The notes beneath the pieces are model-generated. The model worked only from the letters and a program-made list of their open reading frames with translations. It had not been told where the DNA came from and did no database searches. Of a DNA stretch of 64,000 nt, positions 2,809 through 6,729 are shown one piece after another. The position numbers were made by a program, and so were the translations under genes. This DNA comes from Rhizobium sp. TH2 (GTDB taxonomy: Bacteria > Pseudomonadota > Alphaproteobacteria > Rhizobiales > Rhizobiaceae), in contig NZ_CP062231.1 of assembly GCF_024707525.1 (NCBI RefSeq), positions 248,001 to 312,000 of the forward strand, written 5' to 3'. Every line of letters starts with the position of its first letter. Position 1 is the first letter of the stretch.

Positions 2809-3080
2809 GGCGCTTTGTTAGCATGAGGAGAGCGTGAGTCAAAGATTGCGCCATGCCGGAAGCGGCCCGGGGCCTGACTTATTTTCGCCCGCCCTAGCAG
2901 CAAATTCCGGCGCACCGCCCCATCGCCGCGACTGGCGGAGCCGCGTGGAGGTCAAGGGCCGATGCACCGGATTTTGCAGCGCTTCCTGGCGGGGGAAGAG
3001 CGTCACGGATACCGCCCGATCATGACAGAAAGTGTCAGCAGTCGCGCGACCGCGCTGGTGGAACGCCGGTGGAGCCTCTT

Positions 3081-3216
3081 GCTCCCTCTTCTCCCCCTGG
3101 GGAGAAGGTGGCCGAAGGCCGGATGAGGGGTTGCGCGAAGCGCCAAGCCGGGTTGTGAGAACCCCTCATCGCCTCGCCTACGCTCGGCACTTCTCCCCAA
3201 GGGGAGAAGAGGGAGC
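3081..3216. repeat. Two head-to-head CTTCTCCCC-type extragenic palindromes
   Basis: One repeat unit runs forward (CTTCTCCCC..GGGGAGAAG, spacer, GATGAGGGG; about 3081-3131). A second runs in reverse (3160-3216). Together they form one long inverted repeat whose outermost 16 bases (3081-3096 and 3201-3216) are perfectly complementary. Further copies occur at 3241-3285, 13263-13315 and 13341-13385, always between genes. This fits a rhizobial intergenic mosaic element. On transcription the arms could form a long hairpin. Confidence 0.85.
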
Positions 3217-3240
3217 CCACAGTTCCGCCCGCGCCACGAG

Positions 3241-3285
3241 TCCCTTCTCCCCGCCTGCGGGGAGAAGGGCAGGCAGATGAGGGGC
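3241..3285 (+). repeat. CTTCTCCCC-type extragenic palindrome, third copy
   Basis: CTTCTCCCC, a short loop and GGGGAGAAG are followed by GGCAGGCAGATGAGGGGC. The GGCAGGCAGATGAGGGGC part is matched, in reverse complement, by the copy at 13263-13315, so hairpin and tail travel as one unit. Confidence 0.8.
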
Positions 3286-3340
3286 AACTCTCAGCCCGAC
3301 GCTCCGGCGACGCGCGTCACGAACACACACACGCGACGTC

Positions 3341-3363
3341 ATCCTAGGCCTTGTGCCTAGGAT
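3341..3363. repeat. ATCCTAGGC hairpin repeat
   Basis: A perfect 9-bp inverted repeat (ATCCTAGGC, loop CTTGT, GCCTAGGAT), preceded by CGTC and followed by CTGG. It resembles the CGTCATCC..GGATC hairpin that recurs between genes in many alphaproteobacteria. It is a different family from the neighbouring CTTCTCCCC repeats. Confidence 0.65.
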
Positions 3364-3535
3364 CTGGTGCCGCTCCCAAGCCATCGGCGTCCCTGCTCGC
3401 CTTCGCTGGCTACGCTGCGGAAGTACGGCTGCGATGGGGAATTGATTGCAAGTGAGGCTGGTGGGATAAAGGGCGTCATCGTCAATACCCAATCGACGCC
3501 TTCCCATCAGCTCAAGCTGCCACTATTTGAAAATA

Positions 3536-3564
3536 AACGACTTAACGCATCCCGTTAAGTCGTT
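3536..3564. promoter_or_regulatory. Operator of the HigB/XRE-ImmA cassette
   Basis: A perfect 12-bp inverted repeat, AACGACTTAACG - CATCC - CGTTAAGTCGTT, runs into the -35 hexamer of the cassette promoter. Position and symmetry fit the binding site of the dimeric XRE protein encoded by the second gene, giving negative autoregulation as in other HigBA-type modules. The operator role is inferred; the palindrome is seen directly. Confidence 0.75.
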
Positions 3565-3591
3565 GACTATTGAGCGTGGTTCGCTTATTGT
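3563..3591 (+). promoter_or_regulatory. Sigma-70-type promoter, probably leaderless
   Basis: TTGACT at 3563-3568 is followed after 17 bases by TATTGT at 3586-3591. Only six bases separate the -10 from the ATG at 3598, so transcription should start at or next to that ATG. No Shine-Dalgarno sequence precedes it. The toxin mRNA is therefore likely to be leaderless. Confidence 0.65.
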
Positions 3592-3597
3592 ACGGCA

Positions 3598-3906
3598 ATG
3601 AAAATTGAATTTCTGACGCGAAAACTTGCGCTGATTGAGACCGATAGGGCTGCAGAGACAAAGCTGCCTATTGCTGTAATCCAGTCTGCTCGGCTCAAAT
3701 TGACACTCCTGCGCGCTGCACCAGACATTGGTACGCTGCAGGGCTGGAAGAGCCTCGGGTATCGCGAAACTTCCCGCGGCTCGGACGTTGAGCACACGAT
3801 TTTTGTAACACCAGAATGGGAGATGAACATGCAGTTCCAAATCGAACAGGATTCCACACGCGTTGTTGTAGTCAGCATGAAAGAATGCAGCCGGGAGTCG
3901 GCTTGA
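3598..3906 (+). CDS. HigB-like (RelE/ParE superfamily) toxin
   Basis: A 102-residue protein matching the pattern of HigB-like toxins. It has an N-terminal helix pair (..KLALIETDRAAETKLP..), an LxLLRAAPDIGTLQGWKSL segment, and a C-terminal beta region (EMNMQFQIEQDSTRVVVVSM) of the kind that forms the mRNA-interferase sheet. Such toxins cleave mRNA on the ribosome. The toxin-first order with the antitoxin second is the HigBA arrangement. The stop codon overlaps the next start (TGATG), so translation is probably coupled. Base composition is visibly more AT-rich than the flanking chromosome. The family call rests on gene order and general pattern, not on identified catalytic residues. Confidence 0.75.
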   Translation: MKIEFLTRKLALIETDRAAETKLPIAVIQSARLKLTLLRAAPDIGTLQGWKSLGYRETSRGSDVEHTIFVTPEWEMNMQFQIEQDSTRVVVVSMKECSRESA

Positions 3907-5033
3907 TGGATGAACTGAAATCAGTCGGGCTGCAGTCGCCAGGAGTCTTCATTAAGCACGAACTTGATGTAAGAGGATGGACACAGCGCGACTTAGCTTT
4001 CATCTTAGGTCAAACTGAGCAACAATTAAGCCCTTTGCTGGCGGGGAAACGGGCTATCACGCCAGACATGGCCCTGCTTCTAGGCGACGCCTTTGGGGTT
4101 AATCCCGAGTTCTTTGCAAATCTTCAAAGCCAATATGATCTTTCGAATGCTCGGACACCCGATCCTGGCGTGCGCGCACGTGCTGAGCTTCAAGTGATGT
4201 TTCCAGTCCGAGATATGATCCGACGTGGCTGGATAGAAGATTCTGAGGCATCCTTACTCAGGCTCCAAGTAGATAGATTTTTTGAAGTTGCGAATGAAAA
4301 TGAGATCAGTTCGATTTCGTTCGCTGCTAAGAAAACACACTACGATAGCGTGCCGCCGCATCAACTAGCCTGGGTTTATCGAGTGCGGCAACTTTCACGC
4401 CAAATTCAACTGCCACCATTTGATAGTGAGAAGCTGAAAATCGCGCTTCAACGTTTGCGCAGCCTGATGATTGATCCGGAAGCCGTTGGAGAAGTTCCAA
4501 GAATCCTCATGGAATGCGGCGTTAGATTTGTCGTAGTGGAGCTGCTTCCAGGTGCAAAGATAGATGCCGTATGTACTTGGCTCAATGACGAAAGTCCTGT
4601 CATTGGGATGTCAACTTTATACGATCGTCTGGACAATTTCTGGTTTGTTGTACGTCACGAAATTGAGCATGTTTTGCGGGGCGACGGAAAAGGTGATGAT
4701 TGGATCGTCGATCATCTCGTCGGCGAACATGCGTCCGCCGATTCCGGCGTGGAAGAGGCCGAGCGTATCGCGAATGCTGCGGCTGCCGATTTCTGTGTGC
4801 CGCGTCAGAAGATGGAATCCTTTTTTACTCGAAAGCATCCGTATTTCGCCGAGAGAGATGTATTAGGCTTTGCTGCATTAATGCATGTCCATCCCGGAAT
4901 TGTTGTCGGTCAACTTCAACACAAGATGAAAAGATTCGACTATCTTCGTAAATACCAAGTGCCTGTGCGTAAATTCTTGACTGCAAAAGCCGTAACCGAT
5001 GGTTGGGGTAGTGTCGCAGCGGCAGAACTCTAA
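3906..5033 (+). CDS. XRE-family antitoxin fused to ImmA/IrrE-type metallopeptidase domain
   Basis: A 375-residue protein. Residues about 25-68 form an XRE helix-turn-helix (RGWTQRDLAFILGQTEQQLS..). The C-terminal half carries a gluzincin-like HEIEH motif at residues 251-255 within FVVRHEIEHVLRG, the zinc site of ImmA/IrrE peptidases. ImmA-type domains cleave or sense a partner regulator. Fused to a HigA-like DNA-binding domain they occur in extended toxin-antitoxin modules. The ATG at 3906 is chosen because it overlaps the toxin stop and begins just before the HTH; upstream in-frame starts would lie inside the toxin gene. It probably neutralises the toxin and binds the 3536-3564 palindrome. 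What the peptidase acts on is unknown. Confidence 0.85.
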   Translation: MDELKSVGLQSPGVFIKHELDVRGWTQRDLAFILGQTEQQLSPLLAGKRAITPDMALLLGDAFGVNPEFFANLQSQYDLSNARTPDPGVRARAELQVMFPVRDMIRRGWIEDSEASLLRLQVDRFFEVANENEISSISFAAKKTHYDSVPPHQLAWVYRVRQLSRQIQLPPFDSEKLKIALQRLRSLMIDPEAVGEVPRILMECGVRFVVVELLPGAKIDAVCTWLNDESPVIGMSTLYDRLDNFWFVVRHEIEHVLRGDGKGDDWIVDHLVGEHASADSGVEEAERIANAAAADFCVPRQKMESFFTRKHPYFAERDVLGFAALMHVHPGIVVGQLQHKMKRFDYLRKYQVPVRKFLTAKAVTDGWGSVAAAEL

Positions 5034-5046
5034 CCGGAGAGACCCT

Positions 5047-5526
5047 ATGGTGTCTTACACTGAGCAGATGCAGGGCATTTTTAATCGCTATATTGCCGAA
5101 GTTAGTGCGTCACCAGTATCTCTTGACGAGGTGGCGGAATGGGCAATCCGGAAACGTCTTTTCTTTCCTCAACCAAGAGATGTTTCCAAGCTTTGTCGCG
5201 AAGCACTTGCTGAGAGTCTACGACATGAGAAGCGGGTGGATGAGAAAGGTCGAAAATATCGATCAAAGCACTCGGTAAGAGAAGCAATTGGAGGTGCGCA
5301 GCTTAACTTGTGGGCAGATATCGACAGCGCGCCTCGCTCTTTCATGGAACGATCATTCGCCCAGCGGCGCAAGTCCATTTCTGATGATTGCTTTCAAATT
5401 AAACAGGATGTCGACCATTTCAACGATAGAGATCCGGCATCGTCGCCTATTCAGATGATACTCGACTTCTCAGAAGACGTCGCTGAAATGGAAGCACTGC
5501 GTTACGGTGGGTCCGAGGCGGCTTGA
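5047..5526 (+). CDS. Conserved third protein of the HigB/XRE-ImmA cassette, function unknown
   Basis: A 159-residue soluble protein with no recognised domain. It starts at the ATG at 5047, behind a CCGGAGAGA ribosome binding site and 13 bases after the XRE-ImmA stop, so it belongs to the same operon. It is rich in charged residues. Features that look conserved-type are RKLxxxE-like helices near residues 45-60, a basic KGRKYRSKH patch (68-75), LNLWADI (87-92) and DCFQIKQDVDHFN (114-126). The end is acidic (LDFSEDVAEMEAL). From memory, similar proteins sit next to XRE-ImmA/IrrE genes in other proteobacteria, but that could not be checked here. It may be a third module component or the peptidase target. 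Confidence 0.75.
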   Translation: MVSYTEQMQGIFNRYIAEVSASPVSLDEVAEWAIRKRLFFPQPRDVSKLCREALAESLRHEKRVDEKGRKYRSKHSVREAIGGAQLNLWADIDSAPRSFMERSFAQRRKSISDDCFQIKQDVDHFNDRDPASSPIQMILDFSEDVAEMEALRYGGSEAA

Positions 5527-5613
5527 TACGAAAAGGCGATAGGGGCGGAGTTCCTATAATTCGATCCTGCGCGTAAAATTGATTCCATAATTTCTGGCTA
5601 ATAAGGTGCCACG

Positions 5614-6528
5614 ATGTCATTTGATGTAAAGATCAAGAGTAATGAAATTGTATCCCCCTTCTTATCGAGTATCGAAAATCGAAAAATAAAATTTGATGAA
5701 CTCAAGTTAGATCCTAGGAGAGCGGTTCGCACCAAAGTTTCCCGGCTTTCTGAGGACATCGTTGCTTGCGCTGAAATTATTCTGAATTACGTTGATAAGC
5801 TGCCCGAGCCCGGGCATCCCGAAGTTGAGTCTACACCACTCAAGAATGCGTTCGAAAAGCTTTGCTACGTGGCCGCAGAAACCTTCGAGGCTTACGAGGA
5901 TTTAGGGCAAGCGTTCAAGTTCGGCAAGGACGCGAAGAGGCAGTTTGACAAAACAATCAAGAGCCACCGGCGCGATTGGGGCCTTATTTGCAACGCTATC
6001 AAGCACGATATGAATGAATTAGTCCCCGTCTTCACCCGTCACTTGGAGTCGAAACGCTATCTGCACTGCTTTTCGCTAATGCGGCCACTCGGCGACGACA
6101 AGTGCGCCATAAATATGAGCCTGCATTCCGGCTCGGAACAAATGCGTTCTTATACCGTCGCCCTCAGGCAGCTTATTTCTGACGTCGTAAAGTGCGATAG
6201 GGCGGCAGCTATTCTTTGGAGCACGTTGCCTGACACCGAAGATGCCCCGTTGTCTGTTCCCATTGTAATACTTAGCGGACTGTTGGATGCAATGACCCGT
6301 GTGTCAAGAACGGAACCACGTGCTTATAAGCGCCAATCAAGCATGTATGATGGGTTCACCATACATAGCGATTATGTGTCATTCGGAAGGATGCAGGCCG
6401 AGATCGAAAGCGGCGATATCGCGGTTACCTCTCTTCAAAGGGGTGACGGCGTCGTGGTTACCTTTCCGATTCTGGGAAGCGACGGGGAGACATTTACAGA
6501 TGGAAGTTTTCGTAGATCGGTGGGATGA
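5614..6528 (+). CDS. Hypothetical protein in accessory island
   Basis: A 304-residue, mostly helical soluble protein without signal peptide or membrane segment. It is not recognised. An RRDWGLICNAIKHDMNEL stretch (about residues 119-136) recalls the N-x-x-KH helix of some HEPN-like proteins. The strict HEPN R-x4-6-H spacing is not present, so no nuclease activity is claimed. The gene follows the three-gene cassette by 87 bases, has an AAGGTG ribosome binding site, and shares its low GC content, which suggests acquisition in the same event. It may be a separate transcription unit. Confidence 0.7.
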   Translation: MSFDVKIKSNEIVSPFLSSIENRKIKFDELKLDPRRAVRTKVSRLSEDIVACAEIILNYVDKLPEPGHPEVESTPLKNAFEKLCYVAAETFEAYEDLGQAFKFGKDAKRQFDKTIKSHRRDWGLICNAIKHDMNELVPVFTRHLESKRYLHCFSLMRPLGDDKCAINMSLHSGSEQMRSYTVALRQLISDVVKCDRAAAILWSTLPDTEDAPLSVPIVILSGLLDAMTRVSRTEPRAYKRQSSMYDGFTIHSDYVSFGRMQAEIESGDIAVTSLQRGDGVVVTFPILGSDGETFTDGSFRRSVG

Positions 6529-6548
6529 GCGAAAGCGATCCATGAGTC

Positions 6549-6624
6549 TACCTCTCCCCTTGCGGGAGAGGATAGAAAACCTGCTTTTTCATTGAAAAAG
6601 CTTAGGTTTTCTTGGTGAGGGGTG
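6549..6624 (+). repeat. Modular CTCTCCCC extragenic repeat, copy 1
   Basis: The architecture is TACCTCTCCCC-loop-GGGAGAGGATAG, then a central palindrome (AAAACCT..AGGTTTT), then CTTGGTGAGGGGTG. Copies at 20029-20196, 20223-20323 and 63898-64000 share both ends but have different central palindromes. The unit is therefore a mosaic with an exchangeable middle. Confidence 0.8.
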
Positions 6625-6729
6625 AAAGCCATCCCCAACCGAAAAGCCAAAAATAGGAAAATATTCACAAAACCTCTTCCCATCCCCACACCCTCGTGCT
6701 ACATTCCTCTCGTTCCGTCGTCGGATACA

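What the first reader, a model, noticed from the sequence alone, without database searches (positions are those of the whole stretch)
3536..5526. Three-gene HigB / XRE-ImmA / unknown-protein cassette with its own operator
A HigB-like toxin gene, an XRE regulator fused to an ImmA/IrrE metallopeptidase domain (HEIEH at residues 251-255) and a third 159-residue protein are packed in one operon behind a perfect 12-bp palindrome at the -35. A peptidase fused to the antitoxin and a conserved third partner go beyond a standard HigBA module. The peptidase may cleave the antitoxin part, the third protein or a phage factor, making the cassette a regulated stress or defence switch. The operon and motifs are seen; the defence role is inferred.
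Basis: partly seen in the sequence, partly recalled or inferred. Interest (0 to 1): 0.75.

Follow-up and report, generated by a model that had tools for sequence, protein, structure and literature searches.

The report
Dead-toxin, repressor-protease cassette from a transposon
Three tightly linked bacterial genes, related to a known anti-virus switch but with a new third part and a 'toxin' that has lost its cutting site, belong to a family that in many other bacteria travels inside a jumping gene.

Summary
The anatomy is real: A (3598-3906, HigB fold), B (3906-5033, HigA-type repressor fused to an HExxH peptidase) and C (5047-5526), behind an inverted repeat at the -35 that near relatives keep. 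C matches no family or fold searched. In all 100 related loci with at least 1200 nt upstream, C directly follows a B gene (a remnant in one).

The closest tested system is PD-λ-2 (HigB-like, HigA-peptidase, Beta protein): same logic, but its third protein is unrelated, so this is a sister variant, not a member.

(1) A is probably not a toxin here: all nine window-clade members lack key HigB catalytic residues, yet the half that should contact HigA stays conserved under purifying selection. (2) In 20 related loci A-B-C, or B-C, stands beside a divergent IS1-type transposase; 17 have both terminal inverted repeats, 13 of these with perfect 8-bp target duplications. The window's lineage nests among these but has neither transposase nor ends. 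(3) A same-genus relative carries an iSirtuin-nSTAND gene at the same site.

Best reading: an abortive-infection or addiction switch in which A restrains B. Function is inferred.

The parts
3536..3564 (.). operator: inverted repeat, 12-nt arms 3536-3547 / 3553-3564, 5-nt spacer
   Evidence: recognisable in nine of nine window-clade loci
3563..3591 (+). sigma-70-type promoter TTGACT-17-TATTGT, overlapping the operator; start of transcription predicted at about the ATG (leaderless mRNA, inferred)
   Evidence: consensus match, not above shuffles in number
3598..3906 (+). gene A: HigB-fold protein of 102 aa that lacks key HigB catalytic residues and keeps the half that should contact HigA
3906..5033 (+). 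gene B: HigA-type HTH repressor (residues 11-83) fused to an ImmA/IrrE (M78) metallopeptidase domain, 375 aa; HEIEH at 251-255 and E286 invariant
5047..5526 (+). gene C: 159-aa protein of a family without a name; confident model (pLDDT 91.5), no significant fold match
   Evidence: linkage
2831..6652 (.). stretch without detected DNA homology to the same site in a same-genus relative (L152); variable insert that holds the cassette and the 304-aa gene 5614-6528

Best explanation
A PD-λ-2-like abortive-infection or addiction switch with an unrelated third protein and a repurposed toxin. Shown by sequence: B is a HigA-type repressor fused to a peptidase whose HExxH and E286 are conserved; a conserved inverted repeat overlaps the -35; C is strictly linked to B; A has the predicted HigB fold, its half that should contact HigA is kept and key RNase-site residues are lost. 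Inferred: B binds the 3536-3564 repeat and represses its own operon. A docks on B's HigA domain as a HigB would, but works as a lock (antitoxin-like partner or co-repressor), not as a ribonuclease. A phage or stress signal, sensed by B or C, frees or activates the B peptidase. Cleavage of a target (B itself, C or a host protein) relieves repression and stops growth. C is needed for the response, as sensor, substrate or effector. The cassette belongs to a family that elsewhere is the cargo of an IS1-type transposon; the window copy sits within that branch of the tree and probably lost transposase and ends.
For: B matches PADLOC PD-Lambda-2_B over residues 15-358 at 1e-39 and HigA TIGR02607 above its cut-off; H251, E252, H255 and E286 are invariant in 17 of 17. 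For PD-λ-2, passages of PMC9519451 state: abortive infection; B alone toxic; A rescues; C not needed to neutralise but needed against λvir. A: K57, R62, R75, D96, Y97 and H98 are kept by 0 of 9 in the window clade, whereas K57 is in 48 of 54, R62 in 49 of 54 and R75 in 54 of 54 of the proteins that end in DYH (D96, Y97 and H98 separate the sets by construction). N-terminal half 67% identical within the clade, C-terminal half 32%, against 60% and 59% in ten near relatives with the site. dN/dS of A 0.04 for L067/L068, like B 0.06 and C 0.03. Model of A matches P. vulgaris HigB, TM 0.72. C after B in 100 of 100 loci with room. Operator conserved. Tree: window in a nine-row clade (100/98) inside a 30-row set with 16 transposase-bearing loci (100/100). 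TIRs and 8-bp duplications.
Against: I found no experiment on this cassette or a C-bearing relative; the function rests on a system whose third protein is unrelated. The M78 score of B is under Pfam's cut-off (18.5 against 22 bits). PDLC03982 also rings on short HTH proteins, so the name alone proves little; the full-length match matters. Flank defence genes were seen but no background was measured. Most A proteins of the wider family end in the HigB motif (54 of 78), so A-as-lock need not hold for the whole family. A is absent from 17 of the 104 loci, contig ends included, so B-C can stand without it.
Confidence: 0.5

Rival explanations
1. Transposon-derived maintenance and regulation module without a defence role. 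B evolved to control an IS1-type transposase divergent from A-B-C through the shared promoter region of about 105-156 bp, as ImmR/ImmA controls an integrative element; A-B-C stabilises or times the element. The window copy is stranded cargo kept by addiction or chance.
For: 20 loci with a divergent IS1-type transposase beside A or B; 17 with both TIRs around the whole unit, 13 with perfect 8-bp target duplications, 0 of 4640 at random positions; a window-like operator (13 to 15 of 16 positions, reached by at most 1.5% of shuffles) in 7 of 19 transposase-side intergenic regions; TA pairs are described as integral to Tn3 transposons (abstract of PMC7157771).
Against: About four fifths of the loci, the window clade included (0 of 9), show no transposase, though upstream DNA is short in some; the window clade keeps operator, A, B and C under purifying selection without it. 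In 12 of 19 intergenic regions no convincing window-like operator was found, and 11 of 19 hold no inverted repeat of score 7 or more.
Confidence: 0.28
2. Ordinary three-gene HigBA toxin-antitoxin system: A is a ribosome-dependent RNase, B neutralises and represses, C is an accessory.
For: Toxin-first order, HigA domain, operator; 36 of 51 A homologues match PF05015; GraT and HigB are found by profile and HigB by fold.
Against: The window A and its eight nearest relatives lack key catalytic residues; PD-λ-2 work found B, not A, to be toxic.
Confidence: 0.12
3. A is a decaying pseudogene and the live unit is B-C alone.
For: C-terminal half of A diverged; six transposase-bearing loci show no A at all.
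Against: A is an intact ORF in 9 of 9 window-clade loci with a conserved N-terminal half, and dN/dS is 0.04 to 0.35 in the pairs not marked saturated, most of them with high dS.
Confidence: 0.05

Closest known systems
PD-λ-2 (Vassallo et al. 2022, PMC9519451)
   Same: Three-gene order HigB-like / HigA-HTH fused to ImmA-IrrE peptidase / third protein; B matches PD-Lambda-2_B over most of its length.
   Different: PD-λ-2_C is a Beta protein of about 375 aa (PF14350) and does not match our 159-aa C; A of the one complete example examined, L136, matches PF09907 (E 5e-5, below its cut-off), ours is of the PF05015 kind; no transposon is mentioned in the passages read.
HigBA type II toxin-antitoxin systems (P. 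vulgaris HigBA, GraTA)
   Same: Predicted fold of A, HigA domain of B, toxin-first order, operator.
   Different: Catalytic site of A lost in the window clade; peptidase fused to the antitoxin; third gene.
RosmerTA (RmrT/RmrA)
   Same: HTH-ImmA protein as antitoxin (passages of PMC10440598).
   Different: RmrA profiles match B only weakly (E 0.001 to 0.05); partners not compared.
TA modules in Tn3-family transposons (PMC7157771, abstract and outline only)
   Same: Toxin-antitoxin genes as a regular part of a transposon.
   Different: IS1-type transposase and ends, HigB / HigA-ImmA / C.
ICEBs1 ImmR/ImmA
   Same: HTH repressor plus ImmA peptidase controlling a mobile element (described in PMC10440598; name ICEBs1 recalled).
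   Different: Repressor and peptidase are fused here, with A and C partners.

Membership tests
PD-λ-2 | HigB-like first gene | tested here: met
   HigB fold and family profile, though of another Pfam kind than the one example, L136
PD-λ-2 | second gene HigA-HTH fused to ImmA/IrrE peptidase | tested here: met
PD-λ-2 | third gene of the PD-λ-2_C (Beta) family | tested here: not met
   C matches neither PADLOC (E<=1) nor Pfam; PDLC03983 gives one chance-level match elsewhere (E 0.78) in ten genomes with C hits; Beta_protein is not among the 25 families shown of 33 for 73 C proteins
PD-λ-2 | phage defence by abortive infection | not testable with these tools
   needs phage plating
HigBA type II TA | HigA-family antitoxin domain | tested here: met
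   TIGR02607 52.2 bits, cut-off 47.7
HigBA type II TA | HigB catalytic residues in the toxin | tested here: not met
   that Y91 and H92 of HigB are catalytic rests on PDB titles, passages on His92 and recall
HigBA type II TA | palindromic operator before the toxin gene | tested here: met
   binding itself not tested
HigBA type II TA | toxicity of A, neutralised by B | not testable with these tools
   needs expression tests
RosmerTA | RmrA-type antitoxin | tested here: inconclusive
   weak RmrA matches only
TAC (toxin-antitoxin-chaperone) | SecB-like third protein | tested here: inconclusive
   C has no Pfam match; SecB is not among the 25 families shown of 33 for 73 members; no significant fold match
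IS1-type transposon (the window copy) | transposase and terminal inverted repeats | tested here: not met
   no transposase match in the own genome; no end with up to 3 mismatches in the window
IS1-type transposon (relatives L001, L025, L027, L031, L032, L057, L059, L075, L098, L101, L106, L113, L125) | IS1 transposase, TIRs and 8-bp target duplication around the unit | tested here: met
   the Pfam scan was run on two transposases only (L001, L003), the others by profile; the L098 transposase is split between two frames; transposition itself not tested

The most novel reading that the evidence does not exclude
The family is a self-regulating IS1-type transposon whose cargo doubles as an immune or addiction switch. 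A repressor-protease (B) controls both the transposase and a HigB-derived partner through one operator region, and C is a new signalling or effector protein. In several lineages, the window's among them, the toxin was disarmed and turned into the antitoxin of B, while the cassette was freed from its transposon to live at variable chromosomal sites.
Probability: 0.28. Interest if true: 0.82.

Novelty: new variant of a known kind. Interest (0 to 1): 0.62.

Why it matters
PD-λ-2 left a puzzle: the HigB-like protein was the antidote and the HigA-peptidase the poison. A lineage in which the HigB active site has vanished while the half that should contact HigA stays conserved offers a natural test of that reversal. 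C defines a widespread family without a known fold. The IS1-type transposon gives a concrete vehicle by which such a cassette can move between distant bacteria, and links repressor-protease switches, toxin-antitoxin modules and transposition.

Tried and rejected

The 304-aa gene 5614-6528 as a fourth member: chance-level family scores only, no plasmid homologue, no homologue in the related loci held (that database also held alignment rows as stray records, which gave warnings but removed no locus). Rejected.

A transposon around the window copy: no end with up to 3 mismatches in the window; with up to 6 mismatches three scattered sites, all inside A or B. Rejected for the window.

Terminal repeats were tested first in 16 loci; 11 were clear, while L040, L059, L074, L029 and L033 showed none above the shuffles (my notebook says 12, which is wrong). 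A looser pattern then gave end pairs in 17 loci, besides a weak pair in L040 that I did not count; L029 and L033 showed one end only. L003, L074 and L090 lack a target duplication and L114 has one mismatch.

Operator between transposase and A: I first took it by eye to be common. A scored test found a window-like operator in 7 of 19 regions and none convincing in 12, and 11 of 19 hold no inverted repeat of score 7 or more; the claim and the odds of the novel case (0.30 to 0.28) were lowered.

Linkage caveats: loci were found through C, so the count says that C rarely stands without B, not that B always has C. Plasmid B hits at or under 36% identity that I opened (L018, L020, L021, L022, L023) have no C. 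Records overlap: L009 and L074 are the same genome and several viral contigs are near-copies. Four loci without B were left out of the 100 because they have less than 1200 nt upstream: L064 (119), L115 (81), L126 (236) and L066 (1057). L066 counts against the rule: a C fragment with about 1 kb upstream and no B. In L065 B is a C-terminal remnant; L122 is frameshifted; L053 has a split A; the Thauera plasmid (L019) keeps only the C-terminal part of C.

Degenerate-A label on the tree: set by hand on 19 rows; three (L004, L048, L049) are only partly degenerate, and the five changes are counted on the 43 labelled rows of 90.

Site comparison: in a third relative (L154) the two flanks match in opposite orientations, so the site is rearranged there and was not used. 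The three relatives are 81 to 84% complete.

Literature: no search returned a paper that I recognised as describing an IS1-type element with HigB / HigA-ImmA / C (listings); the library lacks most subscription journals, so absence is weak. PMC10538038, on a metalloproteinase / HTH-Xre pair of Brucella, was seen in a listing only. PMC5027501, on the HigB mechanism, is not held. Paper use: passages of PMC9519451, PMC11980606, PMC10440598 and PMC6393540; abstract and outline of PMC7157771; listings only for the rest.
Full report
Anatomy. The window holds three intact genes on the + strand: A 3598-3906, B 3906-5033 and C 5047-5526. An inverted repeat with 12-nt arms at 3536-3547 and 3553-3564 overlaps the start of a TTGACT-17-TATTGT promoter-like match at 3563-3591 (such matches are no more frequent here than in shuffles). 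Its -10 box ends 6 nt before the ATG of A, so the transcript is probably leaderless (inference). The repeat is conserved: each of the nine loci of the window clade shows a form of CGACTTAACG..CGTTAAGTCG next to the -35, shortened in some, and in the closest pair, L067 and L068, DNA similarity runs only from about 60 nt before A to about 40 nt after C. The unit is therefore operator-A-B-C. The next gene, 5614-6528, was found in no related locus held.

Gene B. Residues 11-83 match the HigA antitoxin family above its cut-off (TIGR02607); residues 218-310 match Peptidase_M78 below its cut-off, but H251, E252, H255 and E286 are invariant in 17 of 17 aligned B proteins. The PADLOC profile PD-Lambda-2_B matches residues 15-358 at 1e-39. 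That profile also rings on short HTH proteins.

Gene C. No match in Pfam, NCBIfam, PADLOC or PHROGs, and in Pfam only scattered weak scores for 73 members. The model is confident (pLDDT 91.5) and finds no significant fold match. Homologues: 3 plasmids and 1 phage; 10 of 397 genomes of the order, the own genome and one weak match (G023) included; 32 viral contigs; and 60 genome contigs, by their titles of Pseudomonadota, Nitrospira, Acidobacteriota, Planctomycetota, one Chloroflexi and one Bacteroidota MAG among others (MAG binning not checked). Of the 104 loci analysed, 100 have at least 1200 nt upstream of C, and all 100 have a B homologue immediately upstream (58 of 58, 30 of 30, 12 of 12); in one, L065, it is only a remnant. 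The other four are cut off before B's place or, in L066, hold a C fragment with 1057 nt upstream and no B. A is found in 87 of the 104.

Gene A. The window protein has no family hit of its own, but 36 of 51 aligned family members, the window's not among them, match PF05015 HigB-like toxin, the family profile finds GraT and P. vulgaris HigB, and the predicted structure matches HigB (TM 0.72, probability 1.00, E 0.0019). Full-length alignment shows what is missing. Of 78 distinct A proteins, 54 end in DYH, taken as the place of Tyr91 and His92 of HigB. The nine window-clade proteins have none of K57, R62, R75, D96, Y97 and H98 (numbering of L078), and two of nine keep each of S67, R69 and N71 (sets were split by the DYH ending, so D, Y and H differ by construction, the others do not). 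The N-terminal half is 67% identical within the clade and the C-terminal half 32%; in ten near relatives with the site the figures are 60% and 59%. In GraTA the toxin residues that touch the antitoxin lie between 27 and 50 (PMC6393540 passages), which corresponds to the kept half (my reading of the alignment; inference). dN/dS of A is 0.04 for the closest pair, as for B (0.06) and C (0.03); most other pairs are saturated or nearly so. On the tree of B a hand-set label of degenerate A needs at least five changes on the labelled rows, so disarming of A probably happened more than once. A protein kept by selection after losing its active site is most simply a binding partner.

Relation to PD-λ-2. 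According to passages of PMC9519451, PD-λ-2 has a HigB-like A, a HigA-peptidase B and a C related to a P4 phage antitoxin; it acts by abortive infection, B is toxic alone, A rescues, and C is needed for defence. One complete relative (L136) has PF09907 in A (below cut-off), M78 in B and Beta_protein PF14350 in C. PD-λ-2_C was found in 7 of 398 genomes of the phylum and not at our C. Of the eight PD-λ-2_C regions then fetched, four hold a recognisable B-type ORF; two of the other four are on short contigs. Our cassette shares the logic and the B type but not the third protein, so it may work like PD-λ-2 and is not filed as a member.

Transposon. Upstream of A, or of B where A is missing, 20 loci carry a divergent IS1-type transposase of about 290 aa (PF03400 and HTH_38 in the two scanned; partial in L040, split in two frames in L098). 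Of the eight C-bearing genomes given to six have it; the window's genome and G130 have none, and G158 has a second copy elsewhere. Terminal inverted repeats GGTAGTG(GG/TC)TCAGTTTGA enclose the whole unit. For 17 loci with both ends the element is 3.1 to 3.7 kb; 13 of 17 have a perfect 8-bp target duplication, one has one mismatch, three have none; at random positions 0 of 4640. A window-like operator lies between transposase and A in 7 of 19 regions tested (L057, L059, L075, L090, L098, L106, L113) and is not convincing in 12. On the tree of B (90 rows) the window sits in a clade of nine (100/98), all with degenerate A and no transposase found, inside a set of 30 rows of which 16 bear the transposase (100/100). 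The simplest history is that the window lineage lost transposase and ends; the root is by midpoint, so the direction is inferred. The window has no such ends.

Site and flanks. The cassette is in 1 of 9 same-genus genomes. In one relative (L153) about 750 bp stand where the window has about 5.1 kb, and in another (L152) the same interval holds an iSirtuin-nSTAND7 protein and a 238-aa protein: a variable site with immunity-type content, though PADLOC names neither. Among 140 flank proteins of 27 transposase-free loci (of 173 proteins of 33 loci listed), type I specificity and methylase profiles match 3 proteins each and MADS profiles 3 to 4, possibly the same proteins (25 of 236 families shown), with four integrases and three resolvases. 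No background rate was measured, so enrichment is not claimed.

Mechanism. Shown: linkage, operator conservation in the window clade, conserved peptidase ligands, lost RNase-site residues, transposon structure in relatives. Inferred: B represses through the operator; A binds and restrains B; a signal activates the peptidase; C is required downstream or as sensor; the outcome is growth arrest that blocks phage or stabilises the element. The main rival is a maintenance and timing module of the transposon without defence; the two are compatible.

Novelty. The kind, a HigB/HigA-peptidase switch with a third protein, is known. New as far as I could see are the C family, the disarmed HigB lineage and the IS1-type transposon as vehicle; that these are not in print rests only on the listings.

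Noticed in passing
L001, L003, L013/L032, L015/L031, L057, L059, L075, L090, L098, L101, L106, L113, L114, L125 and others: IS1-type transposon of 3.1-3.7 kb with divergent transposase and the A-B-C or B-C cassette; 13 of 17 with perfect 8-bp target duplications.
   Followed up: yes
L152:13332-17252: At the window's chromosomal site a same-genus relative carries a 1065-aa iSirtuin-nSTAND7 protein and a 238-aa protein, matched by no PADLOC model at E 0.01.
   Followed up: partly
L018:2968-5941 and L022:2911-6026: ImmA/IrrE-HTH gene facing a convergent pair of a roughly 310-aa unknown protein and a thymidylate synthase, the same layout on a Pantoea and a Rhizobium plasmid.
   Followed up: no
L021:568-4065 and L023:333-4044: Two-gene HigB / HigA-ImmA operons directly beside multiubiquitin-ThiF genes on Micrococcus and Rhodococcus plasmids.
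   Followed up: no
L061, L100, L123, L124: B-C loci with neither a detected A nor a detected transposase upstream.
   Followed up: no
L066:1058-1342: C fragment near a transposon-type end (1681-1698) with no B in the 1057 nt upstream.
   Followed up: no
window:5614-6528: 304-aa orphan gene within the variable insert; no homologue in plasmids or related loci, no family.
   Followed up: partly
window:3064-3270: Dispersed palindromic repeats (CTTCTCCCC..GGGGAGAAG) just left of the cassette, within the variable stretch.
   Followed up: no
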